Assembly: GCA_036244855.1 (NCBI GenBank)
Contig: BQKZ01000358.1
Coordinates: 79,344 to 143,343, forward strand
Direction of reading: 5' to 3'
Origin: Temnopleurus reevesii
Lineage: Eukaryota > Echinodermata > Echinoidea > Temnopleuroida > Temnopleuridae
DNA: 64,000 nucleotides
The notes under the pieces are model-generated. The model saw nothing but the letters and a program-made list of their open reading frames with translations, searched no databases and had not been told where the DNA came from. The translations under genes were made by a program, and so were the position numbers. Below, piece after piece: positions 445 through 56,967 of this stretch. Position 1 is the first letter of the stretch. Each line of letters starts with the position of its first letter.

Positions 445-607
445 GCTTATGATAGACGTTAAGTTGTACTGTGATTCGCATTACTACGGTCCAGAGTGTT
501 CGGTGTACTGTCGACCTAGAGGAGATGGAATAGATCACTTCTACTGTGACCCTCTGACAGGGGACATCATCTGCCATGCTGGATATACGGGAGAACGATG
601 TGAAGTG
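445..607 (+). CDS. Gene 1 exon: DSL domain
   Basis: The acceptor is ccctatttcatcag just before 445 and the donor is GTATGT at 608. The first base completes a codon of the missing upstream exon, and the exon ends in phase 0. It encodes a full six-cysteine DSL module, with the Notch-contacting loop in near-canonical form ([13 protein letters not shown], 11 residues between cysteines as in Jagged). Gene 2 exon 5 has the same boundaries and phases. Confidence 0.85.
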
Positions 608-3600
608 GTATGTATCGAATCATCACCACTATCACCGCCTCATCCATCATCATCATCATCATCATCACATTCATCATCGTCATCACCAGATTCACTATCA
701 TCATCATCATCATCACCATCATATGAACATCTCGTATAATCATACAACTGTTCCATAATGTGTTGTGCAAATAAAAGCCAAGCGATCTTCAACAGCCGAG
801 TCCCTCTCAGTACAAGGCAGTTGACCTAGAGGAGATGGAATTGATCGCTTCTACTGTGACCTTTTGACAGGGGACATCATCTGCCATGCTGAATATACGA
901 ATCATCACAATTATCACCACCACCATCACTACCACTAACATCACCACTATCAACATCGTCGCCATCACCATCACCATCATCACATCCATTGTTTGATGGC
1001 TATAGATTGAGATGGATGTGCTTTAATGGCTTAACTATCATTCAGATGCCTGGAAGCACAATATGGTTAACGAGAAGTACATCGATAATGACTTTGTCCT
1101 TTCAATGTGTCCCTATCATTAAAGTTCTATTTAACTCAACGTATTAAAAACATTTAATCTTCTTCAGGAAATTGATGAATGCGTTTCAGGACCCTGTCAA
1201 AATAACGGAACGTGTCATGATGTGGTGAATGGTTACTGGTGTACCTGTCAGGAGGGAACTACCGGTGAGTTACATTCTATTATTCTGTATAAGAGTAAAT
1301 TAAATTGACACACAATGTCAACATAGAATTAGAAGAAATTGAGTTAGTACACACATTAAGCAGAACGTACAAACAAATTGGACAGATTACACAGCTCCCA
1401 TACGATTATTCACAATAGCTGTTGAATAAATAGTAAATAAATGAATAACACGATGTTAACTATTTCCGAAAAGTTAACTCGAAGGCAAACAGTAGATCCG
1501 TACACCGTGTATTCAACACGGTACCGATTTCAATAGCATTACAAAAGGCCATTGAAATTGCGTTTGACTTTACTTTTCGAAAATACTTTATATCGTGTTG
1601 AATGAATTTTTCCTTATTTTACGAAAAATTGTCGGACAGGTGTCGCACCTTCGATAATCACATCGGTTAATCTTTGATAAAACATGTTTGTCAGTTGAAA
1701 CATTTATATCGCTGATAACTTATTATATTTATGTACTATATTTACGAAATAATGAAAATTGTTTTCACAGGTAATGTGTGTCAAAAGAACCCCGATGACT
1801 GCTTACGTCACGAGTGCATAAACGGAGCATCGTGTGTTGATGGGTATGCAGATTACACATGCATCTGCCCACCTGGATTCAATGGCCGATATTGCGAGTT
1901 CAACATCAATGAATGTGCCAGCTATCCATGTCAGAACAGCGCTATCTGTTCAGACGGAATCGATGGATACATATGTCTTTGTGTTCCTGGATACACTGGA
2001 AGCCACTGCGAAATTAACATTGATGAATGTGCTAGTGATCCTTGCTTCAACGGTGCAAGTTGTATTGATAGGGTGAAAAGGTATAACTGCAGATGCATCA
2101 AAGGATATGAAGGGGTGCACTGTGAAGTGGACATAGACGAGTGTGCCAGTGATCCCTGTCAACATGGGGCAACCTGCAAGGATGAAGTCAATGGATTTGA
2201 ATGTGTATGCAATCCGGGATATCAGGGAAAGTTTTGCCATGTAAACATAAATGAATGCAAGAGTAGTCCATGTTTGAACGGCGCCAGCTGCTTAGATGGA
2301 ATCAATGGATACAACTGTAGTTGTGTCCCTGGGTATGATGGCATACACTGTGAGGTCAACATTGATGAGTGTAGCAGCAGTCCTTGTATCCATGGAAGCA
2401 CCTGTAATGACCTTGTGAATAGGTATCGATGTGATTGCCTCCCAGGGTATGAGGGAGACGAATGTCAGATTGAGATAGACGAGTGTCAGAGTGATCCTTG
2501 TCAGAATGAAGCTCCGTGTGTTGATATTGTTAATGGTTATCTTTGTGAATGTCTACCTGGATATGAAGGAGTACAATGTGAGACAGATACGGATGAATGC
2601 CATAGTAGCCCATGTCAAAATGCCGGTAGCTGTTTGGATAGAGTCAATGGATACGTCTGCGAATGCGTTGATGGCTTTGAAGGAACTAATTGCGAAATAA
2701 ACATAGATGAATGCGAAAGTGGACCTTGCCACAACCAAGGAACTTGTGAGGATCGAGTTAACGGCTATACTTGCACCTGTATGCCAGGATTCACAGGAGT
2801 GGAATGTGAAATCAACGTAAACGAATGTGCTAGTTCCCCTTGCAAAAACGATGGGTCTTGTGTAGATCAAGTGAATGGTTACATCTGTGAATGCACTCCT
2901 GGATATACTGGCGTCTTGTGTGAAATAAACATTGATGAATGCGCTTCATCCCCTTGTATGAATGATGCAACCTGCACCGATGAGGTTAATGGATACACAT
3001 GCACTTGTAGTCCAGGATACACCGATATACACTGCGATGTTGAAATCAACGAATGCGCTAGCGTCGTTTGCCAATACGGCGGGACATGTGTTGATTTAAT
3101 CAATAGATATGAATGTATCTGCTCACCTGGATATAATGGATTACAATGTGAAAATAATATCGATGAATGCGCTAGTGAACCGTGTCAACATGGCGCCACT
3201 TGTGAAGACCGCGTCAATGCATATCAATGTAACTGCGTGTCCGGCTACGAAGGAGTGGACTGTGAAATTGACATTGATGAGTGCTCCAGCTCACCATGTG
3301 AGAATCGTGCAACTTGTGTGGATAGGGTCAATGGATATACATGCACATGTCTCCCAGGATACGAAGGTGTGCATTGCCAGATCAATATTGATGAATGTTC
3401 CAGCAACCCTTGTGAAAATGGTGCGCTCTGTGTTGACAAGGTCAACCAATATCGGTGCAAATGTAAGGCAGGATACACAGGAATACACTGCGAAACTGAA
3501 GTTGATGAGTGCTCGAGCAATCCTTGCGAAAACAATGGTCTGTGTGTGGATAAGATAAACGGATATACATGTGAATGTGTTCCAGGATATACAGGGACAC

Positions 3601-6600
3601 ACTGTGAAGTAAACATTGATGAGTGTGCTAGCTCACCCTGTCAAAATGAAGCGACTTGTGAAGATGGTATCAATCAATTCAGCTGCATCTGTCTACCAGG
3701 TTACAAAGGACCAATATGTGAAATTAACATTGATGAATGTGGAAGTAATCCGTGTTTGAACAATGCTACATGCCAGGACGAAATAAATAGATATAGTTGT
3801 TTGTGTGTTCCTGGATTTGAGGGTGTGCACTGTGAGACAAACATTGATGAATGTTACTCTGACCCCTGTGCCAATGGTGCTTCTTGTATGGATGATGTCA
3901 ACGGCTATACATGTGAATGTGCTCCTGGTTATGATGGTGTCCACTGTGAAAATGACGTCGATGAATGCCACAGTTCTCCGTGTTTGAATGGTGCTCAATG
4001 CATTGACCGAGTTAACCGATACAGGTGCAAATGTCTACCCGGATATGAAGGTACTCATTGTGAGGTTGATATTAATGAATGTGAGAGCGATCCGTGTTTG
4101 AACGGCGCTTCGTGCGTAGATGAAGTCGACCACTATGTTTGTATCTGCATTCTGGGGTTTGAAGGAGTTACGTGTGAAACCAATATAGATGAATGCAGCA
4201 GCAATCCATGTCAGAATAATGCCACGTGTGTGGATCACATCAACCGATACACATGTGACTGCTTACCAGGATTTGACAGCGTACATTGCCATGTGGATAT
4301 AGATGAATGTGCAAGCGACCCGTGTCAACATGAATCCATTTGTGATGATCAGATCGATAGGTATCAGTGCCACTGCCGTCCTGGATACAGGGGAATCCAT
4401 TGTGAAAGCGAGATCGACGAGTGTCAAAGTAACCCCTGTCTTCATGGTGCAACCTGCATGGATAAAGTCAATCGTTATAAATGTAAATGCTTGCCTGGAT
4501 ACTCAGGTGACCACTGTGAAGTAAACATAGATGAATGTGAAAGTTCACCTTGTGAAAATAACGGGATATGTGAGGACCATGTCAACCATTATACTTGCCT
4601 GTGTCAACCAGGATTCAGTGGGCGAGTTTGCGAGGTCAACATTCAAGAGTGCAACAGCAATCCTTGTATGAACAATGCCACTTGTAATGATGGTATCAAT
4701 GAATACCAATGTGACTGTCATTCTGGTTTTGAAGGAACACACTGTGAGGTGAACATTGACGAGTGTGGATCAAATCCTTGCCAATATGGATCAACATGTT
4801 ATGATGGGATTAATGGCTATACCTGTAACTGTGCTCCAGGGTACATTGGCCTCCACTGTGAACAGGAAGTTGATGAATGCGAGAGCTTGCCTTGCCAAAA
4901 CGATGCTAGATGCGTGGATCGTGTAAATGGATACCACTGTAGATGTGTTACAGGGTTTATTGGTATTCACTGTGAAACTGAAATCAATGAATGTGAATCA
5001 GGACCATGCCAGAACGGTGCGACTTGTCTTAATATGGTTGGGAGATTCGTTTGTACATGTACACCAGGATATAACGGTACACACTGTGAAGTAAATATTG
5101 ATGAATGCGAAAGCTCTCCATGTATGAATGGGGCTACTTGTAGAGATGAAGTCAACGGATACACATGTGAATGTGTAGATGGATATGATGGTATACATTG
5201 TGAATCGGAAATTAACGAATGCTCAAGTAGTCCATGTCAGAATGGTGCTCTCTGCTCCAACCTTGTCAATGAATATGAATGTATCTGCAAAGCAGGCTTT
5301 ACCGGTGTCCATTGTGAGATAGATATCGATGAATGCATCAGCGGACCTTGCATGAACAATGCAACTTGTGTCGATCGTGTCAATAGATATAAATGCAAAT
5401 GCGTCCCAGGATATGAAGGAACGCATTGTGAAACTAACACCGATGAATGTAAAAGCCTACCATGTCAAAATAATGCAGTTTGTGTGGATGAAATCAACCA
5501 GTTTTCTTGTCAGTGCCTTCCTGGATTCGAAGGCACTCTCTGTGAAGTAAATATCGATGAATGCAGTAGCCTTCCATGCCAGAACAATGCAACCTGTCTA
5601 GATCAAATCAATGGATACTCCTGTGCCTGTCTTCCTGGTTTCGAAGGAATTCATTGTGAAACAAATATTGATGAGTGCTCCTCATCTCCGTGTCAGAATG
5701 AAGCAACATGTACAGACGCCATTAATGGTTTCTACTGCGATTGTTTATCAGGGTACGTAGGGATACACTGTGAAACAGACGTCGATGAATGTTCAAGTGG
5801 TCCATGCCAAAACGGGGCGCTTTGTGTCGACCGAGTGAACAAATATAAATGTCGATGTTTGGACGGTTTCGAGGGAACACACTGTGAGATTAATATCGAT
5901 GAATGTGAAAGCAACCCATGTCAAAATGATGCTACCTGCATGGATATGATCAATGGTTTCGAATGTACCTGCGTTCCTGGATTTACCGGTTTAATTTGTG
6001 AAACAAACATAAATGAGTGTATAAGCGAGCCGTGCCTTAATAACGGAACTTGTGTAGACTTAATTGATGGATATAGATGCCTTTGTCTTGATGGGTACAA
6101 TGGGCGGCATTGCAATAATGACATTGATGAATGCGATAGTAGTCCTTGTTTGAACAATGCTACATGCATTGATCTTGTTGACAGATACGAGTGTCGATGT
6201 AAACCTGGATATGAAGGAGTACATTGTGAAGGGGACATCAACGAATGTTACTCTTTCCCATGTGAAAATGGTGCGACGTGTATAGATATGATTAACGGTT
6301 ACGATTGTGAATGCCTTCCAGGATACGAAGGGATCCATTGTGGGATAGAAACAGATGAGTGCGAAAGCAATCCATGTCAAAACGCGGGAACGTGTGTCGA
6401 TCGAATCAACAAATACAAGTGTAAATGTAGGGCTGGATTTGAGGGAAATGAATGCCAAGTTGACATAGATGAATGCAGCAGTGATCCATGTACTAATGGT
6501 GCGTCTTGTTGGGACGTTATCAACGGATTCGTATGTGAATGCGCTGAAGGATATGATGGAATACACTGCGAGATCAATATTGATGAATGCGAAAGCGGTC

Positions 6601-9600
6601 CTTGTGAAAACGGTGCTACGTGTGTAGATGAGGTCAATGGATATACGTGTACCTGTGATTCCGGATTCGAAGGCACATTCTGTCAGATAAACATCGATGA
6701 GTGTGAAAGTAGCCCATGCTTGAATGGAGCAAGCTGTCTTGACAAGGTAAATGGGTACAGGTGCCAATGTGCAGAAGGGTACGATGGAATTCTGTGTGAG
6801 ATCGACATCGACGAGTGTGCATCTTTACCTTGTCAAAATGGTGGTCGATGTGAAGACATGGTGAACGCTTATACCTGTCACTGCGAAGAAGGTTTCGACG
6901 GAATACACTGTGAATATAACATCAACGAGTGCCTCAGTAATCCATGTTTGAATTCGGCGACCTGTTTGGATATGATCGCTGGATATCTTTGCGAATGCAG
7001 CCCGGGTTATACCGGTGTCCACTGTGAAACTGACATTGATGAATGTACTAGATCTCCTTGTGCGAATGGAGCAACATGCATGGATGAGGTTAACGGGTAT
7101 AGATGTTCATGCGCTCCCGGCTATAAAGGTGTCCTCTGCGAAGTGGACATTGACGAGTGTGCCAGTAGTCCATGCCAGAATAACGCTACATGTGTGGATA
7201 AAGTTGATAGATATAAATGTATATGTGTTGCTGGTTTTCGGGGAAAGGAATGTCAAACTAACTATGATGAATGCACTAGCAATCCCTGTTTGAACAATGG
7301 TCGGTGCGAAGACGGTGTGAATGACTACATATGCCATTGCCAACCAGGATATACCGGCATTCTCTGTGAAACAAATATCGATGAATGCGAATCATCCCCA
7401 TGTGAAAATAAAGCCTTATGCATAGATCATGTCGACGGTTTTACCTGTGATTGTATGGATGGTTTCGATGGAACCTTCTGCTCAAATGATATTGACGAGT
7501 GTTTTAGTGATCCGTGTTTGAATAACGGAAGCTGCTCTGACTTAGTAAATGGCTTTGAATGCAGTTGTGTACCAGGATTTGAAGGACCAATATGTGAAGC
7601 AAACATAAATGAATGTCGAAGTAACCCATGTCTTAACAATGGAGAGTGCGTTGATTACATCAATAAGTATTTCTGCCAATGTGCTGCAGGATACGAAGGA
7701 GTACAGTGCGAATATGAAATTGATGAATGTGCTAGCAGTCCTTGTCAGAATGATGCCGACTGTCAAGATCGAGTTGATGGCTACCATTGCGAATGCGTTC
7801 CCGGGTATGAAGGTACCCACTGTGAAATAGACATAGACGAATGCTCAAGTCAACCGTGTCTTAACAGAGCTACTTGTCGCGACATGATAAATGGATACGA
7901 GTGTCTGTGCAGAGACGGCTATGACGGGGTGAACTGTGGAAATAACATAAACGAATGCCTCAGTGATCCTTGTTTTAATCAAGGAACCTGCAAGGACAAG
8001 GTCAATCGATATAAATGCTTATGTCAGGATGGGTTTGAAGGAGTCCACTGCGAAGTAGATATTAATGAATGCACGAGTTATCCTTGTGTGAACGCGGGCT
8101 TATGTTTTGACCAGGTGAATGGCTACCAGTGTTCCTGCCAACCGGGATTTACTGGTGAACACTGCGAATTAGAAATCAACGAATGCAGCAGTGAACCGTG
8201 TCAAAACAAAGCGTCTTGCGTTGATTTTGTTAACAGATATGAATGCGAATGCAGACCTGGATATAAAGGCCTTCACTGTGAAATTGACATAGATGAATGT
8301 GGGAGTAATCCCTGCTTAAACGACGCAACATGCATTGATAAAGTGAACCGGTTTCGATGTTCCTGTGCTCCTGGCTACACCGGGGAGTTGTGTGGAATAG
8401 ATATAAACGAGTGTCAGAGTTCCCCGTGCCAAAATGATGCAAGATGTCAGGACCAGGTCAATGGATATATGTGCATATGTCCTTTTGGATTTGATGGACG
8501 GCATTGCGAAGTTAATATTGATGAATGTGCAAGCTCCCCTTGCCAGAACGAAGGACAATGCATAGACAGAGTAAACGGCTACGACTGTCAATGCGAAGCG
8601 GGTTTCACCGGAACGGAATGCGAAACGAATGTGAATGAATGCTCAAGCAATCCTTGTCAGCATGATTCGGAGTGCATGGATGAGGTCAATGGATACATAT
8701 GCATATGCAGCCCTGGTACAGAAGGTATACACTGTGAAATTGACATCAATGAGTGCATAAGTCAACCATGTGAGAATGGAGCGAGGTGCAAAGACCAGAT
8801 GAATGGTTATAGATGCCGATGTTCAACCGGGTTCGATGGTGTACATTGCGAAATCAACATAGATGAGTGTGGGAGCTCACCGTGTCAGAATATGGCATCT
8901 TGCCTGGACGCTGTGAACGGATATTCCTGCAATTGTCGGCCAGGATTTACAGGAACACATTGTGAAGTGAATATCGACGAATGTGCAAGCGACCCGTGTG
9001 AACATGGAGGCATGTGTAGGGATCAGGTCAATAGATACACATGCCAATGTCCTGCAGGATACGATGGCAGTCGTTGTGAAAATGATATCGATGAGTGTGA
9101 AAGCTCCCCTTGTCAGAACGGAGCAGACTGCACAGACTCCATTGATGAATATACATGTGAATGCTTAGATGGATACTCTGGAACGAATTGTCAGGTTGAT
9201 ATTGATGAGTGTGCCAGCCAGCCATGTAGGAATGATGGAAGATGTTATGACAAGACCAATGGATACAGTTGCTCCTGTGCTGCTGGCTTTGAGGGAACTC
9301 AGTGTCAAATCAATGTGGATGAATGCAACAGTTCACCATGTCAGAACAGAGGGTATTGCAGAGACCAGATCAATTCATTTTTATGTGACTGTGATGCAGG
9401 ATATGAAGGGACCTTCTGTGAAATCAATATCGATGAGTGCGCTAGTAATCCATGTGAATATGCCTCTACCTGCTACGACAAGATCGACGGATATGGGTGC
9501 GAATGTCTTCCCGGTTACTATGGAGTGCACTGCGAATATGAGAGAGATGAATGCCTGAGCGAACCATGCGGACATGGTGGGAAATGCATTAACGAGATAG

Positions 9601-12600
9601 ACAGATTTACTTGCAACTGCTCAGCTGGATATGAGGGGATAACTTGTGAAATTGATATAGACGAATGCCACAGTCAACCATGTCAAAATGAGGGAATTTG
9701 CTTTGACAGAGTCGATGGTTATGACTGCAAATGCGTTGATGGATATGGTGGAAAGGATTGCCAGTTTGATATTGATGAATGTGCTAGTGATCCCTGTCAG
9801 CATGGTGCTACTTGCAATGACTTTGTAAATGGATACACCTGCACATGCCGGGTTGGTTTCGAGGGTACTTTTTGTGAAACGAATATCAACGAATGTGCAA
9901 GCAACCCTTGTTCAAGCTATGGGCGGTGCGTGGATGGAATTAACGGATACCGGTGCCGATGTAGACCTGGCTTCATGGGTCGTCTTTGTGAAATCGACAT
10001 TGACGAATGTCAAAGTAATCCATGCTTACATGGAAGTAGGTGAGTCGATGGCCTAAATGGATACAGGTGCCTGTGCAGAGCGGGCTATCAAGGGTTCCGC
10101 TGCAGAGATGAAGTGGACGAGTGTCTCAGTAACCCATGCTTGAATGGCATATGCCTTGACAGACTAAATGGATATCGCTGTCATTGCATCAAGGGATTTT
10201 ATGGTAGAAATTGTGGAATTAACAGAGATGAATGCGACAGCGAACCTTGTCTAAATGGTGCTACATGCCAAGATGGAATTGACAATTATTACTGCGAATG
10301 TCCACCAGGATACGAAGGAATCCACTGTGAAATCATAACCGACGAGTGCCAGAGTAGACCGTGTATGAACGGTGCAACCTGCGTTGATGGTTTTAAGGAG
10401 TATACCTGTAAATGCATCCCTGGGTTCGAAGGTAACAACTGTGAGATAAACATAAATGACTGTGCAAGTAATCCATGTCAAAATCGAGCTACTTGTCTGG
10501 ATGGTATTGAAAGCTACTCATGCCAATGTGTCCTCGGTTACAGAGGTGAACACTGAGAGATTGAAATCAACGAATGCGACAGTCAACCCTGTAAGAATGA
10601 TGGAACATGTCTTAATGGTGTGAACAGTTTCTTTTGCTACTGCCCACAGGGCTACGAAGGTTGGTTGTGTGAGATAGAAATAGATGAATGTGAAAGCAAT
10701 CCTTGTCTTCATGGAGGAAAATGTAAGGATGTTACGGCCGGATTCACCTGTCAATGTGAAGATGGATTCAATGGAACACGGTGCGAGACAGTTCTTGATC
10801 AGTGTAAACTCAACCCATGCTACGGAAATGCTACTTGTGTTACCAAGGATAGCAATTTCAAGTAAGTGCGAGATAAAGTATAGGGAAGGATTTTACCTTT
10901 CGGACTCTACAAAGTCCAAATAGTCGAAGAAAATGTCTAAAGTAAAAATATATTTCATGATAAGAAATCAGATAGTCTATGCAGCATAATGTAAATTGTT
11001 ATATTCACTACAATTTTCTTGTCTTGTTTTCAGTCTTGGAATCATGTGATAATCTAAATGCACGACTATTTCAGACGTTTAATATTATGACATCAAGTAG
11101 TCTATACAGTCTAATGTAGATTATTTACCTCGCTACAGTTGTAAGAATCGTTAAATCATGGGATGATAAAAAAGCATGAATGCTTCAGGGAATTGATAAT
11201 TACAAAAAAGAAATACGTTATAAAGAGCATAATATCCATATGAACTATATGTTTTATTTTTAGCTGCCTCTGTCCTCCTGGGTATTCGGGGCCAGATTGT
11301 GCCGACTATGACGAAGAAGGATGTGGGTCAATAAAGTGCTTCAACGGTCAGTGTCTACTCGACAAAAGAAGAGAATATATGGTGACATACATCTGTCAAT
11401 GTATTCGTGGATTCATCGGAGTCGAATGCGACACATGTGAGTGATGTTTCTCATACAATACATATTCTAAAATGAATTAAAAGACAAAAATATTAATAAA
11501 TAGACAAAAAAGAATACTTATAACAACTTGGGATAATACCGGTTTTCTCATTCTGTCATTAATTAGAATGTTTCAGGCCAGTAATGAATTTCAATTTTCC
11601 CAATACAGTCTTGTCTGAAAAAATAAGGAATGTATGATATCAGCATTGCTCAAGCAATTCCATGAACACTGTAAAATTGATAAGACTGCAAATTGAGATG
11701 AAGACGGTCATAGGAAAGTATTACATAATGCGGTTGGTGAAGAGTAAGACATTAACCATTCCATCTCTTTCTATTTCCTCCTCTCTTCCTCTTGATTCCT
11801 TACTCTTAATAATTGAAGATGTACCGAACATCACTGCAAGCGTGTTGATTGAGGAGAAACACACTCAACTGAGAGAACTGGAATACAAGATGAAGGAAGT
11901 CTTAATAGAAGCCATGGAGACAAGCGAGGACATGCATAATTGTTCCAATGTGGACATCTCTATAATAGATAGTACCACGGGCAATGGAGCTTTATCAGGG
12001 TAATCATGACTCAATAAACTCAGTGACAAATCCTAACTAGATCTTCATTTTACCCATTCTTATTAGGGAAGCATGACATTCGACATCTCTTTGACACTTC
12101 TAAAATGATTGGATAAGAGATAACACATTCAAGTAAACTTTATTCTTTATTGTCTGCTTCTTGGATATTATGAATCAAATTTGAAGGCCCTGTATTCATA
12201 AGTCCATTGAACAAGCTTGTCTGTCGCTTTATCAAAAATTGAAGATGACACTTTTTTTTGTATTGAGATATGTAAGCGATCGAAATACAATAAAACCTAA
12301 ATCAAGAATACAGGCTTTCATAGATGACGCTACTTACTTGCTGTAAAAAGATTAAAATTCAACACTAATATATTTTACTCAGATGAAAAACAAATAAAAT
12401 ATCATGATGCAAAGTACAGAATAAATATTTAAAAAATTGTGTAAAAGGAATTGTGGAGAAAAATATTGGCGATACAATTTAAAAAAGACATATAAGTATG
12501 GTCCAGTATCTGAGGTCTGCACCTTTTCTCATTACCAAATAGAGTACCGTGATGAATAAACTATAAAGTTGAAAGGCAATTCGTTGCTTTGCCTATGATT

Positions 12601-15430
12601 TGTGGTAATGATCTGGATGAAGACAATATATTATTATATAATAGTATATTATATCATATTATATTATATTATATATGATATTTTAGTTTTTGTGATTTCA
12701 CCTTTAAACAGGATGGAATACACGAACGTAACGATCTACGCCATGCTGGATGATAAGCCCGCCGATCGGGACGCCCTTTCACTGATGTTGAGAGCCCTAC
12801 CTCCTTCCCATGTCAACAAACTGATCCACCCGTATCGCATCTTTATCGACAAGAAGGTCCCGAACGATGTGAAGACAGAAATCAGCATCAACAATGATGT
12901 TAAGAATAATACGAAAAAGAAGGTACGGGACTACTATACGAGTTTGAATTAAGTCCTTTTGGTTTTCCCTTTTCAGAGAGATTCTTTAATAGACGTGCAC
13001 ATCGTCAACTCTACATGTAGAGAAAATTGGGCAATATGCTGTCAACTCATTTTGTTAATAAAAGAAGCTACCCACTTCTGTTGTTTTGGCCTTACGGACT
13101 AAATCAAAACTATAATGATCAAAATAGTATAGTCGGTTGGAAATATTCTAACCAATAGTTATGTGGAGGGTATGTTTCCAAGAGTTGGGTAAGCTTGTGC
13201 ACAATTTTTTTTTAAAAAGTTGAATTTTAGGCTTGCAAACAAAATATTTATGATATTGGTGCAATAAAATGTTACATGTTACCACCAAATGTGAAATAGT
13301 GTTGGCAAGCATCCCAATCGGTATTAATGGCTTGATATGAAGGGTAGATTGCAAAATTGGTCCGGAAATTTCAATGTTCGGTTCGTTACCTGTTTATTGT
13401 TCTATAGGGAATAGTTTGGGAAGTCTTCATGACGTAAGTTTGAACGGTGAATCATTCCCATGGACTCAAAGGCTTTATGTTGTTATAGGCTGTCTAATAC
13501 AACCTGTCCTCCCCATGCGCTGTTTTGATTCTGTCTGAGTAAGGAGGGCGTGAAGGGTCAAACCAAATTCGTTAAGAATTAACCTAAAATGCGCACCCTC
13601 CCGATCCGACACTCTAGTGACATCCATGATACCTCCGACTCATAAATTCACCCTTAAAGTTACAACTTTCTAGACATGATACACCTAAAAGATGCGAACA
13701 TGACGTGGGAAGATGGAACGTTTTGTGTTCGGGAAAGGAGGTTATGAAGGGGAGAAAATCAAAACCATTTCGAACATATTGAATTCATGCGGAAGGGACG
13801 TTGTCATGGAAACGCAAGACAACACTTCCTCGTTCGTTGATCCCCAGTTCCCTAGAATGATCATAATATCATGTAGCTTCCGACTGCTCGTCTTTATCAG
13901 ATCCATCGAAAATTTAGGATAAGATCCAAACCTTATGTGGTATATCGCCTAAATACAAAAGCGTAATGAGTAAGGTCTAATCACCAATAAGAATATTAAT
14001 CACTATAGCTACCTGCGTGGTTGATTATAAACTTCCGCTTTACGCATTTATCATTTCTATATTGTCTTATCACTGCGTCATCAAGACAATACAATTGGGT
14101 ATCCAGGTTTTTGTATGTACAAATAAGAGCGTCCATAGAGGTAAAGGCCAACTCACCCCTTTGCGTTTTTAGCATGCGTCGGTTTAACGGTTTTGAAAAT
14201 TAAAAACGCTCCATGTACGCTGATCAGACCTGACGTTCGGCTTGCGCTGAAGGAGCGTACGCCGTGTAAGTCGGCCTTAAGACGCGGTATTGCGGTGGAT
14301 TATGTTGAAATTGTGTTTCTTTATATTCAGGGATAAATTCATGCCGTTCCAGAAATAATCTAAATAAATGCCCTTATAAAACAATGTATTTTCAAGATGC
14401 AAAATATAAATGTCACATATTCGACTTCACCGTTCGAACGTAACATTACAGGGACGACTGGACCAACCGGTTGACTGGACCGAGGCCAAGGGGGTTGCAG
14501 GATCCCCTTGCCCACCTTTCCTTTTTTTAAGTAAGCCTATGCGACTGTGTAAAATGGTATTACACATCCACACCTACTTTTCAAAAATGATCCGCTAAGC
14601 TCACATAACTCGGAGGACTTCTTGTTTCTGTAAGGTTAAAAATATTTGTTTTCTATAATCAAAACAGACCAAAATAAAATTTTTTTTAAAAAAGGTTAAA
14701 CTATTTTAGTATAAACTGTGCTAAAAGTCGATAGCTGTGTGCAGTGTATTAAAGTATACGACGTCACAATTCAATCTCTGCTAAGATGGTTGAACTACAA
14801 AGAGCACTAACGTGACGTTTTGCTTGATTTGTAAGAAAAAGGAAAAATTTTCTACTTGATATTCATGAATGTGTTTCCTTTTTATCCCATCAGTCATGGG
14901 GACAGCAAAATTGGTATGTCTTCTTCATCATTATCATCCTCGTTGGAATTGGAATCGCAGGAGCTGTGGTGTACGTCGTTAGGAGGTAAATTCATTTCAT
15001 AACATCTATTTTCCATTTGACTAACACAGTCACGAAAAGCAACAAACTAATTTGATAAACCATTCTTTGATTTAAGAATAGCATTTGATATTTTGAAGCA
15101 TAGTTTGGCTTTCATTCACCAAGTATTAATTATCGTTATTAATTATTTTCCTTATTTGTTTCGTAATGCTCTTGTATATATTCATTAGAACTTTGCATGC
15201 ACATCTAATTCTACTGAGTTGTTGCAAATTACCGAGTAGTTGCAAATTAGCAGCGTTTTACATCTCCTCAAAAAATGTTAAACGGATACTTATCCTAGAT
15301 ATCCCATCCCTTGGCCCTTTGAAGTCCTACTGACTCTCTTTTAAGTTTAACTTACCCATCCAATAATTCATTTATCTCTTGGTTTCCATTTATATCCAGG
15401 CAACGGAAAGCTGAAATTCCACCCGACTGA
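445..15430 (+). CDS. Gene 1 (5' partial): DSL + about 80 EGF + SEA-like + TM protein, Notch-ligand family
   Basis: This is a single-pass membrane protein of the Delta/Serrate/Lag-2 ligand family, expected at the cell surface as a Notch ligand or Notch-like adhesion protein. The visible exons are 445-607, 1168-1264, 1771-10861, 11264-11436, 11819-11999, 12712-12922, 14894-14985 and 15400-15430. Their phases join without conflict and give 3346 codons including the stop. Domain order is a DSL domain (six cysteines), about 82 EGF-like repeats mostly of the calcium-binding 38-residue type, a SEA-like segment of roughly 130 residues, a TM helix ([20 protein letters not shown]) and the tail [11 protein letters not shown]. 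Signal peptide and MNNL exons must lie left of base 1. Two in-frame TGA codons (10041, 10554) interrupt the giant exon at conserved cysteines, so intactness is uncertain. Gene 2 downstream is a tandem paralogue. Structure is seen directly; Notch binding is inferred from family. Confidence 0.85.
619..728. repeat. (ATC)n/(CAT)n microsatellite
   Basis: Degenerate trinucleotide tract directly downstream of the DSL exon donor. It accounts for the His-, Ser- and Met-rich open frames in this stretch. A second, shorter tract of the same kind follows the duplicated DSL fragment at about 905-990. Confidence 0.9.
823..905 (+). pseudogene. Duplicated 3' half of the DSL exon
   Basis: Starts gacctagaggagatggaat and matches gene 1 positions 512-600 with a few substitutions. 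It lacks the first half of the DSL exon and the donor. Its downstream (ATC)n tract is also duplicated, so exon plus intron sequence was copied locally. It cannot encode a DSL domain. Confidence 0.8.
1168..1264 (+). CDS. Gene 1 exon: first EGF repeat
   Basis: A 97-nt exon in phase 0/1 with acceptor tcttcag and donor GTGAGT. It encodes a calcium-binding EGF (EIDEC start) with the O-glucose motif CVSGPC and the O-fucose motif CQNNGTC. The last cysteine (NVC) is supplied by the next exon. Gene 2 has an identically sized exon at 51769. Confidence 0.85.
1447..1599. mobile_element. Palindromic MITE, family A, copy 1
   Basis: Imperfect inverted repeat beginning acacgat..aactatttccga and ending tactttatatcgtgtt. 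It shares ends and core (including acaccgtgtattcaac) with copies at 26663-26837 and about 62675-62852. It is non-coding and lies in a gene 1 intron. Confidence 0.75.
1771..10861 (+). CDS. Gene 1 giant exon: about 79 tandem EGF repeats, two internal TGA codons
   Basis: One 9091-nt exon (acceptor gttttcacag, donor GTAAGT, phases 1/2) made of 114-nt units, each coding a 38-residue calcium-binding EGF. Nearly every unit has the D/N-x-D/N-E-C calcium signature, CxSxPC (O-glucosylation type) and a Gly/aromatic turn before the last cysteine; many also have an S/T before the third cysteine (O-fucosylation type). The first EGF is non-calcium-type (NPDDC start), as in gene 2. Units are well diverged from one another, so the expansion is not very recent, yet the 114-nt spacing is kept with almost no indels. 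TGA replaces the third cysteine of a repeat at 10041-10043 and the sixth cysteine of a later repeat at 10554-10556. A start codon at 1731 lies in the intron and is not the real start. Confidence 0.85.
10862..11263. other. Gene 1 intron
   Basis: GT-AG intron of about 400 bp, AT-rich, with no recognisable content. A partly repeated motif (agtctatgcagcataatgta / agtctatacagtctaatgta) occurs near 10973 and 11099. Confidence 0.7.
11264..11436 (+). CDS. Gene 1 exon: last EGF repeats
   Basis: Acceptor ttttatttttag, donor GTGAGT, phases 2/1. It completes the EGF begun at the end of the giant exon ([12 protein letters not shown]) and adds a final atypical EGF ([12 protein letters not shown], then [12 protein letters not shown]). 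Gene 2 has no separate exon here: its last EGF is at the end of its big exon. Confidence 0.8.
11819..11999 (+). CDS. Gene 1 exon: SEA-like module, first half
   Basis: Acceptor taataattgaag (weak but preceded by a pyrimidine-rich tract), donor GTAATC, phases 1/2. It encodes a charged helical segment ([16 protein letters not shown]) after a short strand ([11 protein letters not shown]). Length, phases and hydrophobic pattern match gene 2 exon 56097-56262. Confidence 0.7.
12000..12711. other. Gene 1 intron between SEA-like exons
   Basis: AT-rich intron with a short TATTA/ATATTAT tract at about 12629-12680 just before the acceptor. Nothing else is recognised. Confidence 0.7.
12712..12922 (+). 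CDS. Gene 1 exon: SEA-like module, second half
   Basis: Acceptor cctttaaacag, donor GTACGG (weak, but the phase-0 choice that joins the TM exon exactly as in gene 2). It begins [13 protein letters not shown], parallel to gene 2 [14 protein letters not shown], and shares the HPYRIFID / SPYRLYND motif. The end is lysine- and asparagine-rich and longer than in gene 2. Confidence 0.7.
12923..14893. other. Gene 1 intron before the TM exon
   Basis: Intron of about 2 kb. It contains a MITE at 14142-14280 and otherwise no recognised gene. The small open frames here show no family signature. Confidence 0.65.
14142..14280. mobile_element. MITE, family B, copy 1
   Basis: Ends aaggccaactcacccctttg and gtgtaagtcggcctt form an imperfect terminal inverted repeat. 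The core tgacgttcggcttgcgct recurs in inverted orientation in the copy at 19838-20082. Non-coding. Confidence 0.75.
14894..14985 (+). CDS. Gene 1 exon: transmembrane helix
   Basis: Acceptor tttatcccatcag, donor GTAAAT, phases 0/2. It encodes [11 protein letters not shown] followed by a long Ile/Val/Gly hydrophobic stretch, ending in basic RR. Gene 2 exon 57966-58054 has the same start pattern ([11 protein letters not shown]) and phases. Confidence 0.8.
15400..15430 (+). CDS. Gene 1 terminal exon: very short cytoplasmic tail
   Basis: Acceptor tttatatccag. The split arginine codon is followed by QRKAEIPPD and TGA at 15428. The cytoplasmic part is only about a dozen residues, far shorter than canonical Delta or Jagged tails of 100 or more residues. 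Confidence 0.7.
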
Positions 15431-45900: not shown

Positions 45901-48900
45901 CTTGGATTTTTTCATATTGCACCAAACTGCACCAACAATAATTACTGACTACCAATGCAACACAACACAATAATAGGCATCTATGAGTCCATAAAGTTAC
46001 CACTAAGTTGCCACCAGTGGTTTTACTCATCTGAGTCATAAAATAAAGGTGTGTTCCGCAAGTCAAGTATGAGCCAATAAGCGGAGTAGATTAGATCAAG
46101 ATTGGTGTGAATGTGGATCGATGTGTTACTAGATATAATGAGAGTTTTGATTGTTTATCTGATTGATTTCAATCGGTCATAGAACTATCAGGAGTGACGG
46201 AAGCGTTCAGACTAAAGGTACATTCGGAGCTAAACTTTAGTCTAATTTTACGAAAGGTGTATGTGTGTATCGGACAGACATTGGCGTGATTGTGGTTTGC
46301 AATTTTATGTACGCCTTGCGTATATATTGCGTATACATAACGCAAATTTAAATTATTTGATACTCCATGTGCAAAGAAAGAGGAAGGGATGACGCTGGAC
46401 TGCATAACAAAAATCGTCCGTGTTTTCACGAAGTGACGGGAGCCAAAGGGTATTGTTGCAAGACAAAGATATCCCGACATATCGCCAATGAAATGGACAT
46501 GCTATCGAACAACGCACATGTTGATTCTATAGAAGGACACGTTTCAATGGATTCCCGTCACTTCGTGAAGACATGGACGAAATTTGAAATTTGAATATTG
46601 ACCTTAAATTAATGAATAAATTAAGTAAATCAATAATAAACGAAAATACGCGTTCGCTATGAACATGAATACATGATTACACCTTTAGATGTAACATTAT
46701 CAAATAATTTTCCTATTTATTTCTACAGGTCATCTCGTACGTAACATCTGAAGTGACGGTAGCGTTCAGACTGAAGGCATATCTGAACGAGAACAGCAGA
46801 CTACTGAACGGACAGTGCTGTGATAACGTAGATAGACCATGCAGTGATAGATGTGATAACAGCTTCGATCTCTGCTTCGGGCCTCCAGGAAGGTGAGCAT
46901 TGCATTGCGGCAAATTGGGTAACGAGCGGGAAATGGGAACATGGGTGATAAGTGAAAGCTTGCAGAACTAAATTATGTCAGATGTTGGAAAGAATAATGG
47001 AAAATAGTGGGGTTCATCCATGTTATAGAACAGGACTTGCGATTCCGGAACAAAAATCAAAATACAATTGTATTGGGAAAAATTATATTCAGTTGTTTCA
47101 TGAAAACGAGTTTATTACAAATAATGAAAGAAGCAGAAGCCTATTCAAAGACAGGAATCTTCACATACGGAGCACCTCTTATAGGCCTATTAGAGGAAAA
47201 ACTCATCGACGCGCGACGTTTAAAACCAACGTATTACGAATGTTGATTGAGTTTAATTGACGCACGGACACAAGGAAGACGTTCTAACTAATGTTAAATA
47301 CGATCGGCTTGCGTTCGACGAACGTGCATACTAGCGTTGGACAAACGTGCCTCCTTCGCGTACATGGCGTAGGGACCACAAAAGAATTTAATTGAACGAT
47401 GGCTTAACGTTGGCTTTTAACGCAAGTGTATGACTGCACCTACAAGGTGATGTGGCCCTTTCAGTTAAAAAAAACTGCTCGACCATAAAGGTTGCATGCG
47501 ATACGTTTTTGTACACTAAAGTGTAAATGTTACATCGTACATTCATGAGGTTCATAAGCAGGTTAAAGAATATTCAACATTATTCGAAAAGAAAAAACTC
47601 TCCGAAGATTGCAGATAAGATGTCTAGATTTCTGCAAGTTGTGCAAGCCTTAATAGCAGTACAAGGCCGTTGGCATGACTTCCTGATTATTCCCAAATTA
47701 TGTGTGGTCAATCCTAAAATAGCCTTTTCGTCTTCTTACTTTCTAGACAGAAGACAGATGCAGAGGACAACACCCACTTATTAAAAAAACATCTGCATGT
47801 AATTCCTGAAAATTTTACAAGACGGGTCAAACTTAATGATGATGATAAATTTGATTGGGGCAACGTGTACCTAAATTAGGGCATCTATCAAGCGAATTTT
47901 AAACAAAGTAGCCTACATTTCACGGAATATATGAACAAATTATAATCTTTTAAATAATTGGAAAAGTACAAAATTATTAAAAGGGTATCGTACAATATTT
48001 ATGTTACTTCCTCGTTTTGTGCTACATTAACAGTTTGATGTCTTAAGCAGCCAATCTTTTTATAACGAAAAAAAATATTTAAAAAAAGTTCATGTATAGT
48101 ATATCTTACTTCTAGCCTTGCGCTACATTATCAGTTTGATATCTGTCGTTTAGCAGCCAATCTTTTTTAAATGAAAATGGAATAAAAAAAAATTCATTAT
48201 TCTATAAATCTTATTCCCGTATGATTCATAAACAATGCAAACAATACAATAATTATGATGACTTTGTTTTGTAAAGACACGGACATTGTGAACTGCCCAT
48301 ACGGCCGGATGGTTACAGGTGCTGTGTTTGACAATCAGGATGACTTTAAGTTCCCTGAGATCTGTCGTTCGTTAAACAGCCAATCATAGTGAAAATGGAC
48401 TTTTAAAAAAGTTCAGTAATCTATACATATCATTCCCTTCTGGTTTATACACAATGCAAACAATACAATAATTATGATAACTTTGTTTTGTAGGGACACG
48501 GACATGGCGAACTGCCCATACGGTCGGATGGTTACATGTGCTGTGTTTGACAACCAGGATGAATTTAAGTTCCATGAGATCTGTCTGTCGTTAAACAGCC
48601 AATCATAATGAAAATGGAATACAAAAAGTACAGCAATCCAATCTTATTCCCGTCTGATTAATAAACAATGCACACAATTAATACAATAATTATGATGACT
48701 TTGTTTTGTAGGGACACGGACATTGTGAACTGCCCATACGGCTGGATGGTTACAGGTGCTGTGTTTGACAACCAGGATGAATTTAAGTTCCATGAGATCT
48801 GTCTGTCGTTAAACAGCCAATCATAATGAAAATGGAATTAAAAAAAACCTCAGTAATCTATAAATATTATTCCCGTCTGATTGATACACAATGCACATAA

Positions 48901-51900
48901 TTAATACAATCATTCTGATAATTTTGTTTTGTAGGGACACGGATATGGCGAACTGCCCATACGGCCGGATGGTTACAGGTGCTGTGTTTGACAACCAGGA
49001 TGACTTTAAGTTCCCTGAGATCCTTTCTGGTAACATCCTCAATCCTATGCACATCAAGGTCCGAGAGTGGGAGGTAAGCCAACAATGTGATGAATGATGA
49101 ATCAATTATCTACAACATACTGAAATCGAAATATAGTTACTGTTGATTCTATTAGACTAAAAAAAAAACATTGACGACAATGATATAAACAATTATATAT
49201 ATATATATATATATATTTAAAAAAAAAGTACGCTCTAAAACCTCAGGCGTGAAATTATGATTTAAAAGAAGGATTTTAAAGTTGGAGGATTAACGACCTC
49301 TTCAACATGTTCTTTACCGTTTCAAATATATAATATTATTCCTAACATTTGCCCTGCCAAATCAAGCATGTTTAGGGTGCACATTTCCCATTCATTTTGT
49401 AAAGGTTGTCATTCCACCGACGTTTTAAATTTTTCATTTCATTATAATAATCTTATTTACAATTGATGAATAGAGCATATATAGTAATCAATGGTAGGAT
49501 ACAATAGGTGACACTTAAAAAGCAATCCGTGTGGAGCTAGATATCAGTCTATCAGCAGATGCTGATATCATCATTTATTATTATTTAAGTCAACTTGGAA
49601 GATTATTACGGCTTTTCATAAATATTTCACGCTATCTTTCTATTTTTAGAGATAAAAGTACCGAAAAGAGGAGAATAATTCAGTTGTCACAATTTTTCTT
49701 CGACATCAATTTAAATATTAGGGGATTTATGAGCATATCCAAGAAATTCCAGACACTTTCTGCATGAATTGTAATAGCAATACGCTTAAAACAGCATACA
49801 AATGAAATCAGACCAAGTTTCCATGTCTTGAGGGTCCATGGTGTTAAAAGATTCTGGGGGAAGGAAAGCTACGTCAAAAATAGTTTACCCAATATCCTGA
49901 AATTCCAGCAACATGATACATGCATCTAATACTGCCCGTACAACTTTTCCTCTTTATAAGCCCCACAACATTCAAAACATGGGCGGATGGAATGTGGGCG
50001 CTTCACGATACACAAAATTAGTAGGACGGATGGTATTTAGTTTTGCCCGTTTTGAAATTGATATTATAATGGGCATGGGACTACTCTCTTCCTAAAATAT
50101 AGTCCCTTCATCTCATCCCTCTTCTTCTTTTCTTCTTTTTCTCCTTCTCCCTGGACAGCGAGGCATCAGGGTAAAGATCGGTGTTTGGGATGTGGATTTG
50201 GGGCACGAGCCAAACAGTGTGGACTTCTACAGCAGGGAGTTCATCATTAGACCTGATTTCAACTTATTGGAGGCTCCCATCTTCAGATATACGCTCTCTG
50301 GCGAAGGGTATACAGAGTAAGTTTTTTGTTAATATGCTGAAATATATCCAATCAAAAGTTGTTCGGGTGAGACAATATTTGTATTTTGGAATGAAAGCTT
50401 AAATCTATAAATCTGAAACATACTGAAAATAGGAGGCATTTATGCAAGTATAGATCACAATATGAATACCTCTTGGACTAGCTCATGATAGAAATGCACC
50501 ATTAAGTAGATGATAGATATACAACGTGAAATAGATTGTGATCGAATTAAATCATGAAACAAATAATTATGAAAGAAATTCATCTTGATTTAGATTTAAG
50601 CTCAAATTGTCCTTGTACCGTTTTGACAGCATCGTTGAAAAAGGTCTAAATGGTCTTATATGTCATATAACGTCTGATGAGAAATGCATTAATGGAAGAG
50701 GGGTCTTGAAATAATCCTTCACTAAATCTGCAAATGGATTGTAACAAAAAATATATATATATCTACATAAATAGCAACTACTATGCTGATATGATTGCAA
50801 ATAATAATTAAATCATTAATGCCTGTTCCATGTATTTTCAGAACAAAGATTGAGATTCGTGTCTACTGTTCCGAGCATTTCTACGCCGAGAACTGCAATG
50901 TATACTGTAACCCAGGTGAAACAGGACACTACAGCTGCAACGTTTGGTCAGGAGAGAAAGAGTGCTTCCCAGGTTGGGATGGTCCAAACTGTGATGTGGT
51001 GAGTCTAAAATACAAATATCGTAGACTTTACAACCACTTATCAAATATATTTAGTGACATTAAACGTGTCCAAATTAAGCCGGACTGAAAATTAATAACT
51101 GTTGTGGAGTCCTGTCATATTTCCTCACAGTAAACCACAGTCATCAGACGGCTCTTTAGCTTCAGAAACGTTGTCTGAATTCTACCCTGCTCGATTCAAT
51201 TCAAAGTTCTAAATATGTACTCGTGGAATAGTAAATAAAATTTGTGCCCAACGTGAGGGTATTTATGTATCCAACAACTAGACGTAATTTTTTATACCAT
51301 ATTTTTTAAGATTACCATGCTCTGCAACAATTGTCATAGCCAAGCAACATTAATACCCATTTTAGGTGGTCCACATATTAGCGCTGAAGTCGTTTCAATT
51401 CACCTTAATCCTCATGTTGCGGACATTGTTACCAATATTGGCCATGTATAACCTTCTTCGTTGCGTTTAGAATCACATTGGCAACACAGACATCATTTGA
51501 AAATCCCCACTTTCCACGTAGATTGGTAATTTAACTATTTAACACGCTTTCAATTCAATATGGTAACATAGCATTTAATTGGAACGTTCTTAAAAAAAGA
51601 GTATTTAAAATTCTAGTGTTGCCAATTTGGGAAAGGAATAGTGATAAATTTGTTGTAAATAATTCCTGTCCTGAATAGGTTAAGAAACGATTGGCACCTC
51701 TGCATATTGACTGAAATTTTCGTAATGGGTTGAATTGATCGTTGGTTTTCTCTTTCTTTTCTCGTCAGAACACGAACGAATGTATCTCGAGCCCGTGCAT
51801 GAACGGAGGCACCTGTGTGGATGTAGAGAACGGATACACCTGCTCGTGTGTCGATGGAGCTCTTGGTAAGAAATAATCTTAAAGGGGAAACCAACCCCTG

Positions 51901-54900
51901 GAATTATTCTGCTTTCATTGAATGAAGAAAATTCAGATCAACAAACTGAAAATTTTGGCAAAATCGGACAACCAAATCAAAAGCTATGAATTTTTGAATT
52001 CACAGAAATTTAACGATCACTGCCGCTCATGGGGATCCGTGCGATCGGCAACACCGACGGAATCTGGGACGTTATGTCGGACAACTCCTCATTCACTTTG
52101 TACATATAATTTTTAAAAATTGATCAATGTAAATTTAGAGTAAGGTTGCAACGTGATTCTCCAAATACACGCATCTCCAAACACACGCAGAATTGACAAA
52201 GGAATATACTATACCCCAACCGAAAATTGCCATTTTGTTTACTTTTCCGAAAAAATGAGAAAATATGAAATTTTGTATACAGAACAAATGAGGAGTTGTC
52301 CGACATGACGTCACAGATTCCGTTGAATTTGCCTATCGCTTGGATCCCCATCAGCGGTAGGAATCGTCATATCTCTGTGACTTTGTATCAAATTCATAAA
52401 TTTTGATCGGGTTGTCCTATTTTCTCATATTTTCACATTTTGTTCATCTGATCTTTCCTCATTCAAGGAAAGCACGATAATGCAAGGGGCTAGCTCGCCG
52501 GATAAAGCATGATCTTCTTTGACAAGTTTTTAATTTTCCACAAGCTGTTAATAGGGCATTGTGATTAACTGGCTAAAATCCGGTCACCTGATCTGACCGA
52601 TTTTTAAAACTAACGCCATTCTTCTCTCAGAACGCGTAACGTTTTGGAAAATGGGGGCTGTCATTTTTTTTTGTGGGGGGGGGGGGGGGTAGGTTGTGTG
52701 TAAGACTGTTAAACACTCACAAAAGCTTTCTCGTATTGACTTTTGAAAAACGGGGCTGCATCCTTCTACGACCGGTTCTACGGTTCCTGAGGATCTATTT
52801 ATTTGTTATGAGGGAATAGAAAATGCAAAATAGGGGTCGGTTCTGCATAGATTGTGATTTAGCTAATAGGCCTGTACCACGATTACTATTATTGATATGA
52901 GTATGATCATATTTTTAACTGAAATTTCTCTTCTTTGTATTGAGCATTAAACTGTAAAATTATCGAGTGAAATGTTAATTCGTTCATGACTGAATATTTT
53001 TACTCATTATTTTTAGAGTACTTTGACAATCCTGGATATGAAATACTATCCACGTTACCACAGTCTACAGAATGTCTTTAATTATTCCAGAGACCTATTA
53101 GATTGATGTTAAATGTCCATATCCATTTCAATTTGCAGGGACGCATTGTGAGCATAACCCAGACGACTGCAGGGACGTTACATGTCAAAATGGTGGACAA
53201 TGCGTGGATGGGTATGCATCCTTCACCTGCCGATGCCCAACCGGGTTCACTGGTCTCATGTGCCAGTTAAACATCAACGAATGTGACTCATCCCCATGCA
53301 TGAATGGGGGAAGATGCCGGGATGGAGCAAATAGTTATACCTGTGACTGTCTCCGTGGGTTCTACGGCACGGAATGTGAGCATGAGATCAATGAATGCGA
53401 AGTACTCAACAACCCCTGCAGGAATGGAGGTACTTGCTATGATCGTGTAGCGTCTTATGTCTGTGACTGCATGGTCGGATTCGGTGGCGAAGACTGCTCT
53501 GTTAATCTGGACGAATGCGCAAGCAATCCTTGTTCTAATGGCGCAAGGTGCATTGATTCAGTCGCTGGGTTCATTTGTCTTTGCAGAGAAGGATTCCGTG
53601 GACTTCTGTGTGATGAAGACATCAATGAATGTTCATCGCGGCCGTGTGAGAACGGGGGTAGATGCATCGATATGGTCGACTCATACGAGTGTGAATGTCC
53701 GTCTGGTTACCTTGGCAACCACTGCCAGATAGAAACGGACGAATGTGCCAGCAATCCATGTTTGAACGGAGGGAGGTGTTTGGATAGAGTCAATGAATTT
53801 AGATGTAGGTGTCCGATGGGATTTAGAGGACATCGGTGTCAAATCAACATCGATGAATGCGAGAGTTTGCCTTGCTTTAACAATGCTACATGTGTAGATG
53901 CCACTGATGGATTTCTCTGTCGATGTACACCAGGATTCACAGGACCGACATGCAGGAATAACGTGGACGAGTGTAACAGTTCACCTTGTCAAAATAGGGG
54001 TATATGCGTTGATGGAGTGAACGGGTATACATGCAGATGCAGAGATGGTTTCTTTGGAGTACACTGCCAATCTGAAATTGACGAATGCGCGAGTGACCCT
54101 TGCCAGAACGGGGCGATGTGTAGAAACTTGGTCAATGGCTACGAGTGTGAATGCATGGTTGGATTTGAAGGGATGCACTGTAAGAGAAACATAGAAGAAT
54201 GTGCGAGCAATCCTTGTCGCAATCGAGCGACCTGTGTGGATCAGATCAATGGGTACTTCTGTAAATGTCGATCCGGGTTTGGAGGAAGGCACTGTGAGAT
54301 CAACGCCAATGAGTGCGCGAAGGAACCTTGCATGCACGGTGGTCGATGCATTGATGCTGTCAATGGCTACTTCTGCCGTTGTCGACCAGGATTTCGAGGA
54401 CGCAATTGTGAGATCGACAATAACGAATGCGCCAGCAACCCGTGTCTGAACGGCATGTGTCTGGACGGGCTCAACCGATATATTTGCCACTGCATAAATG
54501 GCTTTTCTGGGAAAAATTGCGAGGTTAATATCAATGAATGTGCACCACGCCCTTGTAGGAATGGTGGTGTTTGTCGCGATGGAGTCAATGGGTATACATG
54601 TGTCTGTCCCCCAGGCTATGGAGGCAAGAACTGCCACATTAACATCAATGAATGTTCAACGGGTCAATGTCAAAATGGAGCTACGTGTGAGGATGGGATC
54701 CATGGGTTCACTTGTCACTGCGCAGCTGGATTTGAAGGTCTTCTGTGTGAAGTCAACATTAATGAATGCGCAAGTCGTCCTTGCATCAACAATGGAAGAT
54801 GCATTGACGGTGTCGACAGCTACCGATGCGAATGTTTGATTGGATACGAAGGGTACAACTGCGAAGTGAACATCAATGAATGTGCTTCAAACCCCTGCCG

Positions 54901-56895: not shown

Positions 56896-56932
<37 letters not shown>

Positions 56933-56933
56933 C

Positions 56934-56967
<34 letters not shown>

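What the first reader, a model, noticed from the sequence alone, without database searches (positions are those of the whole stretch)
1771..10861. About 79 EGF repeats in one uninterrupted 9.1 kb exon
Seen: one exon of 80 near-exact 114-nt units with splice sites only at its ends. With flanking exons the protein has about 82 EGFs, against 22 in its neighbour and 36 in fly Notch. The repeats differ strongly in sequence yet keep register, indicating long purifying selection after expansion. Inference: unequal crossing-over within an exon in phase with the 114-nt unit; such an array would project the DSL tip very far from the cell.
Basis: partly seen in the sequence, partly recalled or inferred. 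Interest (0 to 1): 0.8.

Follow-up and report, generated by a model that had tools for sequence, protein, structure and literature searches.

The report
Giant EGF exon with two stops
A gene for a Notch-ligand-like animal protein carries 79 old, diverged EGF repeats in one 9-kb exon, but the exon is broken near its end by two stop codons, one of which also forms a strong splice-site-like sequence that could remove both.

Summary
The array is real: 79 complete EGFs in register (77 of 78 intervals 114 nt, one 111 nt) in exon 1771-10861 of a DSL-domain gene whose eight visible predicted exons join in one frame, 82 EGFs in all. 'Uninterrupted' is wrong: in-frame TGA codons at 10041 and 10554 stand at cysteine positions, and the open frame ends at 10043. 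The units are not near-identical: mean DNA identity 0.58, longest exact repeat 23 nt, no repeated 31-mer, silent positions saturated, no trace of recent duplication. The expansion is old and lies between two units that are reciprocal best matches of units in the neighbour's array. TGA1 is part of the exon's best donor-like site, and joining it to the next exon removes both stops in frame; of 1482 other possible nonsense changes 2 give a donor score of 10 or more, none as high. A null allele or a sequence error remain open. Bdelloid rotifers have giant DSL proteins with 56-58 EGFs (9 counted), so the kind is known; this one is larger. Species unidentified.

The parts
445..607 (+). exon x1: DSL domain (5' exons of this gene lie before the window)
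   Evidence: Pfam DSL PF01414, E 2.2e-12; GT-AG and frame
1168..1264 (+). exon x2: one EGF, spacing 4-5-8-1-8 (its last cysteine is in x3)
1771..10861 (+). exon x3: giant exon, 79 complete EGF units plus the start of an 80th
1800..1913 (+). array unit 1, anchor unit: reciprocal best match of neighbour unit N02
   Evidence: identity 0.50 without Cys, rank 1 of 79, z 3.6
10041..10043 (+). in-frame TGA at the third-cysteine position of unit 73; overlaps donor-like TAG|GTGAGT (exon end 10039)
10122..10232 (+). array unit 74, 37 residues, anchor unit: reciprocal best match of the 37-residue neighbour unit N13
   Evidence: identity 0.61 without Cys, rank 1 of 79, z 2.8; N07 also has unit 74 as best match, 0.58
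10554..10556 (+). second in-frame TGA, at the sixth-cysteine position of unit 77
11264..11436 (+). exon x4: end of the split EGF and one irregular EGF
11819..11999 (+). exon x5: membrane-proximal non-EGF domain, first half
12712..12922 (+). exon x6: membrane-proximal domain, second half
14894..14985 (+). exon x7: transmembrane segment
   Evidence: hydrophobic stretch seen directly; no predictor run
15400..15430 (+). exon x8: about 12-residue cytoplasmic tail, stop TGA at 15428
46729..59254 (+). neighbour gene, paralogue with MNNL, DSL, 21 complete EGFs (20 in exon 53139-55568), transmembrane segment and a tail of about 32 residues; no in-frame stop in 1222 codons

Best explanation
This is the 3' part of an animal gene for a membrane-anchored DSL (Notch-ligand type) protein; its 5' exons lie before the window. 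An EGF array inside one exon was expanded long ago between two units that are still shared with its tandem paralogue, and each unit has since diverged alone while keeping cysteines and period (shown). Translated, the array would be a calcium-stabilised, heavily O-glucosylated rod, up to roughly 270 nm if straight (inferred). In the sequence as assembled the array is cut by two TGA codons, in units 73 and 77 of 79 (shown). The most likely single account of these is that a change at the third-cysteine codon of unit 73 made a strong splice donor and a stop at once; splicing from 10039 to exon x4 at 11264 drops 822 nt of exon with both TGAs and keeps the frame, so the product keeps 72 array EGFs, the membrane-proximal domain and the anchor (inferred from sequence, no RNA evidence).
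For: Eight exons with GT-AG join in one frame of 3345 codons whose only stops before the final TGA are the two in question. Register, saturation and lack of recent duplication. Anchor units; units 2-72 are more alike (mean non-Cys identity 0.460) than neighbour units are to each other (0.363) or to them (0.382). Motifs: O-glucose 76 of 79, beta-hydroxylation 79 of 79, calcium leader 61 of 79, O-fucose 48 of 79 (O-glucose and O-fucose consensus from passages of PMC8950332; the other two recalled). Splice account: TAG|GTGAGT scores 10.5, best of 679 GT sites in the exon and above the native donor (8.8); it is in phase with x4; of 1482 other single-step nonsense changes none gives a donor of 10.5 or more and 2 give 10 or more; with a cysteine codon the site scores 7.8-8.1. 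Both TGAs lie in the last 9% of cysteine codons (0.0081 if placed evenly, post hoc). The predicted product, 3071 residues within the window, has no internal stop.
Against: The splice would leave a five-cysteine EGF at the junction. A donor as strong arises somewhere in the exon in 36% of 300 synonymous shuffles, so only its coincidence with a stop is unusual, and that test was chosen after seeing the site. The weight matrices were typed from recall. The acceptor of x4 scores only 5.7; the exon's best acceptor-like site (10650, 9.9) lies out of frame with the donor and would give a truncated product. The skipped stretch is otherwise intact, which fits a recent stop or an error as well. No RNA data, no orthologue, one assembly.
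Confidence: 0.42

Rival explanations
1. The two TGAs are true and no splice removes them: this is a recent null allele or young pseudogene, or the gene now makes a secreted protein cut off after about 72 EGFs.
For: Open frame ends at 10043; five predicted introns lie downstream of the stops, so the transcript would be expected to decay; the tandem paralogue is intact in the part seen and could cover a loss.
Against: No other stop or frame break in 3345 codons and GT-AG kept at all seven predicted introns. Of 474 cysteine positions two are TGA and none is missense, whereas 2.3-3.1 cysteine-missense changes are expected per nonsense change without constraint (P 0.06-0.09, weak).
Confidence: 0.28
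2. Sequence or assembly error at one or both TGAs; the true exon is one open frame of about 80 EGF units.
For: The window has single Ns at 30150 and 59873 and a 253-nt perfect duplication about the N at 59873 that looks like an unmerged contig overlap, so this is a draft. All else in the frame is intact.
Against: Two substitutions, both nonsense, both at cysteines, both in the last seven units, with no other visible damage. Each part of this is only weak: two of two nonsense changes at cysteines has P 0.08-0.10, no cysteine missense beside them P 0.06-0.09.
Confidence: 0.24
3. Recoding: the TGAs are read as an amino acid such as selenocysteine, which typically replaces cysteine.
For: Both TGAs are at cysteine positions, though that has P 0.08-0.10 by chance. 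After the tail stop TGA-GGG-TGA the same frame stays open for 114 codons (chance 0.001-0.002), so the four stops in this frame before the first TAG at 15779 are all TGA.
Against: No SECIS element in Rfam scans at gathering score for the window or at E up to 10 for 15300-19300, and none by a loose pattern in 15430-17500, where two control stretches gave none either, so that last scan had no shown power. The paralogue has no in-frame TGA in 1222 codons and ends in TAA.
Confidence: 0.03

Closest known systems
Canonical DSL Notch ligands (Delta, Serrate/Jagged)
   Same: DSL domain (PF01414) followed by EGFs, transmembrane segment, inside tail; DSL aligns to Delta-like 1 of the PDB (4xbm). Of the five Jagged-1 contact residues named in PMC3415683 (F199, R201, R203, D205, F207; figure-legend passage), R, R and D seem kept; I placed them by the Delta-like 1 alignment and recall of the Jagged-1 loop, not by an alignment to Jagged-1.
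   Different: 79 EGFs in one exon and 82 in all; F199 reads Y and F207 reads I by the same placing; the first EGFs after DSL are orthodox, not short-loop DOS type; no Jagged cysteine-rich domain found by Pfam; about 12-residue tail.
Bdelloid rotifer 'Delta-like' proteins of 4131-4473 aa (P0013, P0016 and others)
   Same: DSL plus a very long EGF array; 11 of the 120 listed homologues carry PF01414 and all 11 are Rotaria or Adineta, bdelloid genera; 56-58 EGFs in the 9 I counted; DSL of P0013 confirmed.
   Different: Fewer EGFs by the same loose pattern (82 here), 36-38% identity, gene structure not seen.
Acanthaster planci LOC110981781 (P0001, 4739 aa) and other echinoderm giant EGF proteins
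   Same: Best array match, 37% identity over 99% of the query; 74 EGFs, the most of 22 proteins counted. The six best hits bear names of echinoderm species (echinoderm membership recalled).
   Different: No DSL match in P0001 at E up to 0.001; it carries fibronectin III domains.
Notch receptors
   Same: Calcium-binding, O-glycosylated EGF arrays; 36 EGFs in fly Notch and human Notch-1 (PMC3415683 passage).
   Different: No LNR or ankyrin part in the exons found here; less than half the EGFs.
Nonsense-associated altered splicing, MAP3K1 c.2254C>T (PMC7567082, abstract read)
   Same: A nonsense change made an exonic donor and an in-frame deletion.
   Different: A patient variant with RT-PCR proof; here sequence inference only.

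Membership tests
DSL Notch ligands | DSL domain | tested here: met
   PF01414 47.5 bits against cut-off 24.2
DSL Notch ligands | MNNL (C2-like) domain before DSL | not testable with these tools
   the window starts just before the DSL exon; the paralogue has it (PF07657 E 1.3e-10)
DSL Notch ligands | EGF repeats and one transmembrane segment | tested here: inconclusive
   EGFs met; a hydrophobic segment is coded in x7, but it is in the product only if the TGAs are skipped, read or false
DSL Notch ligands | DOS-type short-loop EGF1-EGF2 (absent in some ligands) | tested here: not met
   x2 EGF and array unit 1 have orthodox 4-5-8-1-8 spacing
Jagged/Serrate subfamily | juxtamembrane cysteine-rich (von Willebrand C) domain | tested here: not met
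   no such Pfam match at E up to 1 in the C-terminal 231 residues
DSL Notch ligands | binds Notch | not testable with these tools
   none
Selenoproteins | in-frame TGA aligned with Cys | tested here: met
Selenoproteins | SECIS element in the 3' UTR | tested here: not met
   (true 3' UTR not known)
Nonsense-associated splicing or intronized exon | strong donor at the stop, in phase with an acceptor beyond it | tested here: met
Nonsense-associated splicing or intronized exon | spliced transcript | not testable with these tools
   no RNA data held

The most novel reading that the evidence does not exclude
The largest EGF array I have found in a DSL ligand is being shortened in evolution by intronization of its own 3' end: one nonsense change made a strong in-phase donor, most of unit 73 and units 74-79 became intron, and a second stop has already settled there.
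Probability: 0.3. Interest if true: 0.65.

Novelty: new variant of a known kind. Interest (0 to 1): 0.45.

Why it matters
It gives a testable case of how long repeat domains grow and shrink inside one exon: growth here is old and in register, and a possible loss step is visible at base level. A Notch ligand with a rod of 100 nm or more would also bear on how ligand length affects signalling across cell contacts and how pulling force is passed on. If the stops prove false, it stays a very large but otherwise ordinary EGF array.

Tried and rejected
Recent unequal crossing-over or higher-order repeats: flat identity at lags 1-39 (0.572-0.592); same-residue codon identity 0.459 against 0.449 expected from codon usage, and 0.435 at lag 1. 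Assembly collapse: no repeated 31-, 41- or 51-mer in the exon. Introns other than 10039 to 11264 that would skip both stops in frame: lower summed scores, the next being 14.8 against 16.3; 10039 to 10650 goes out of frame. Depletion of donors in the exon: 3 sites of score 8 or more against a shuffle mean of 5.3, no significance computed. Relaxed constraint in units 73-79: their profile scores are low (63.5-92.1; units 1-72 mean 97.4, sd 8.9), but unit 1 is as low (63.3), so end position explains it equally. Position-matched end units beyond the two anchors: six further array pairs ranked 6, 11, 19, 44, 50 and 79 of 79, and 14 of 79 array units match N01 as well as or better than its positional counterpart, the x2 EGF, so only two anchors are supported. 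SEA-like membrane-proximal domain: suggested by eye only; no Pfam SEA match and no solved-structure match below E 0.23. Homologues: the neighbour's residues 950-1222 gave 105 hits with 33-52% coverage, none an evident orthologue; the DSL region among proteins of about 1840-5854 aa gave no candidate, but the rotifer DSL giants lie in that size range and were missed too, so this negative carries little weight. Papers: five searches for such an array (20 of 62 listed; with 1, 2, 0 and 0 papers) showed no report of one in title or abstract start; this is no proof of absence.
Full report
Observation. Reading the + strand from 1773 gives EGF units of 38 residues to the end of the exon. A strict six-cysteine pattern finds 79 complete EGFs, 78 with spacing 4-5-8-1-8 and one with 4-4-8-1-8; 77 of 78 intervals are 114 nt and one is 111 nt (TGAs read as Cys). 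The exon is bounded by GT-AG and joins in one frame to a DSL exon and an EGF exon upstream and to five exons downstream that encode the end of an EGF and one irregular EGF, a non-EGF domain, a transmembrane segment and a very short tail. In 3345 codons this frame has exactly two internal stops, TGA at 10041 and TGA at 10554, in units 73 and 77. Both stand where the other units have a cysteine.

What the array tells. Over 3081 unit pairs DNA identity averages 0.581 and never exceeds 0.728; codon positions 1, 2 and 3 average 0.653, 0.701 and 0.390; the longest exact direct repeat is 23 nt and no 31-mer recurs. Where two units share a residue, their codons agree in 0.459 of 62197 cases against 0.449 expected from codon usage, and neighbouring units agree no more (0.435). 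At silent sites the units are about as far apart as they can be. The expansion is old, nothing shows recent copying or conversion, and dN/dS between units cannot be measured. An assembler working with words of 31 bases or more would not have collapsed such an array.

Origin. The neighbour gene (46729-59254) is a paralogue: MNNL, DSL, the same single EGF exon, a giant EGF exon of 2430 nt, and matching exons for the membrane-proximal domain, the transmembrane segment and a short tail (C-terminal parts 28% identical); it has no counterpart of exon x4. Its unit N02 and array unit 1 are reciprocal best matches (z 3.6 among 79), and so are its 37-residue unit N13 and the 37-residue unit 74 (z 2.8), although N07 comes close to unit 74 as well (0.58 against 0.61). 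Six further array pairs matched by position ranked 6 to 79 of 79, so only two anchors are supported. Between the anchors this gene has 72 units and the neighbour ten. Units 2-72 resemble each other more (0.460) than they resemble neighbour units (0.382). I conclude that expansion took place between the anchors, in phase with the unit; the mechanism, by unequal exchange or slippage, is inference.

The stops. (1) Splice account: the 9-mer TAG|GTGAGT that contains TGA1 is the best of 679 GT sites in the exon (10.5; native donor 8.8), and exon end 10039 has the same phase as the native end 10861, so joining to 11264 keeps the frame and removes both stops. Of 1482 other single-step nonsense changes in the exon none makes a donor as strong and two reach 10. 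A nonsense change that makes an exonic donor and an in-frame deletion is known from MAP3K1 (PMC7567082, abstract), and novel introns of Drosophila are more likely to carry a premature stop (PMC2809761, abstract). Against it: a five-cysteine junction EGF; a weak acceptor at x4 (5.7) beside a stronger, out-of-frame one at 10650 (9.9); the test is post hoc; 36% of 300 synonymous shuffles hold some donor as strong; matrices recalled. (2) Null allele or truncated product. (3) Error: the assembly is a draft, with what looks like an unmerged overlap at 59621-60121. (4) Recoding: no SECIS found. I give 0.42, 0.28, 0.24 and 0.03; the old expansion is common to all and by itself stands at about 0.85. 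That both stops fall on cysteines is in itself no strong fact (P 0.08-0.10).

Function. DSL domain at E 2.2e-12, aligned to Delta-like 1 in the PDB. O-glucose consensus in 76 of 79 units, O-fucose in 48, beta-hydroxylation motif in 79, calcium leader in 61; neighbour 13, 7, 20 and 14 of 21. Notch EGF11-13 is a calcium-stabilised rod of 100 A (PMC3415683 passages), so 82 EGFs could span about 270 nm if straight; this is an upper estimate, and it would be about 74 EGFs if the splice is used. Whether the protein signals, blocks Notch in cis or serves adhesion cannot be told; a tail of about 12 residues argues against ordinary endocytosis-driven signalling (recalled requirement), though the paralogue's tail is short too.

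Known kinds. Giant DSL proteins exist: 11 of 120 listed array homologues (of 4401 found) carry DSL, all of the bdelloid genera Rotaria and Adineta, with 56-58 EGFs in the nine counted. Acanthaster LOC110981781 has 74 EGFs without DSL. Candidates were limited to about 1670-5300 aa, so larger arrays may exist. No orthologue was found, and the window's genome could not be searched, so the species stays unknown; the six best array hits are named as echinoderm species, a weak hint.

Noticed in passing
window 820-899: Partial copy, 93% identical over 80 nt, of the DSL exon (510-589) inside the following intron.
   Followed up: partly
window 48203-49022: Four tandem copies (spacing 218-223 nt; 79-91% identical to one of them) of the region of the neighbour's second MNNL exon; by eye only the last copy goes on to a full exon with donor, and the first lacks the acceptor AG.
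   Followed up: partly
window 59621-60121: Perfect 253-nt duplication about a single N after a run of G; looks like an unmerged contig overlap.
   Followed up: no
window 15437-15778: After the tail stop TGA-GGG-TGA the same frame stays open for 114 codons up to a TAG; chance 0.001-0.002 in local noncoding DNA.
   Followed up: partly
window 11819-12922 and 56097-57393: Both paralogues have a non-EGF domain next to the membrane, with an alternating strand-helix look by eye that recalls SEA domains; profile searches found no match.
   Followed up: partly
window 11001-11033: A pyrimidine-rich acceptor-like stretch ending in CAG at 11033 inside the intron after the giant exon; not scored.
   Followed up: no
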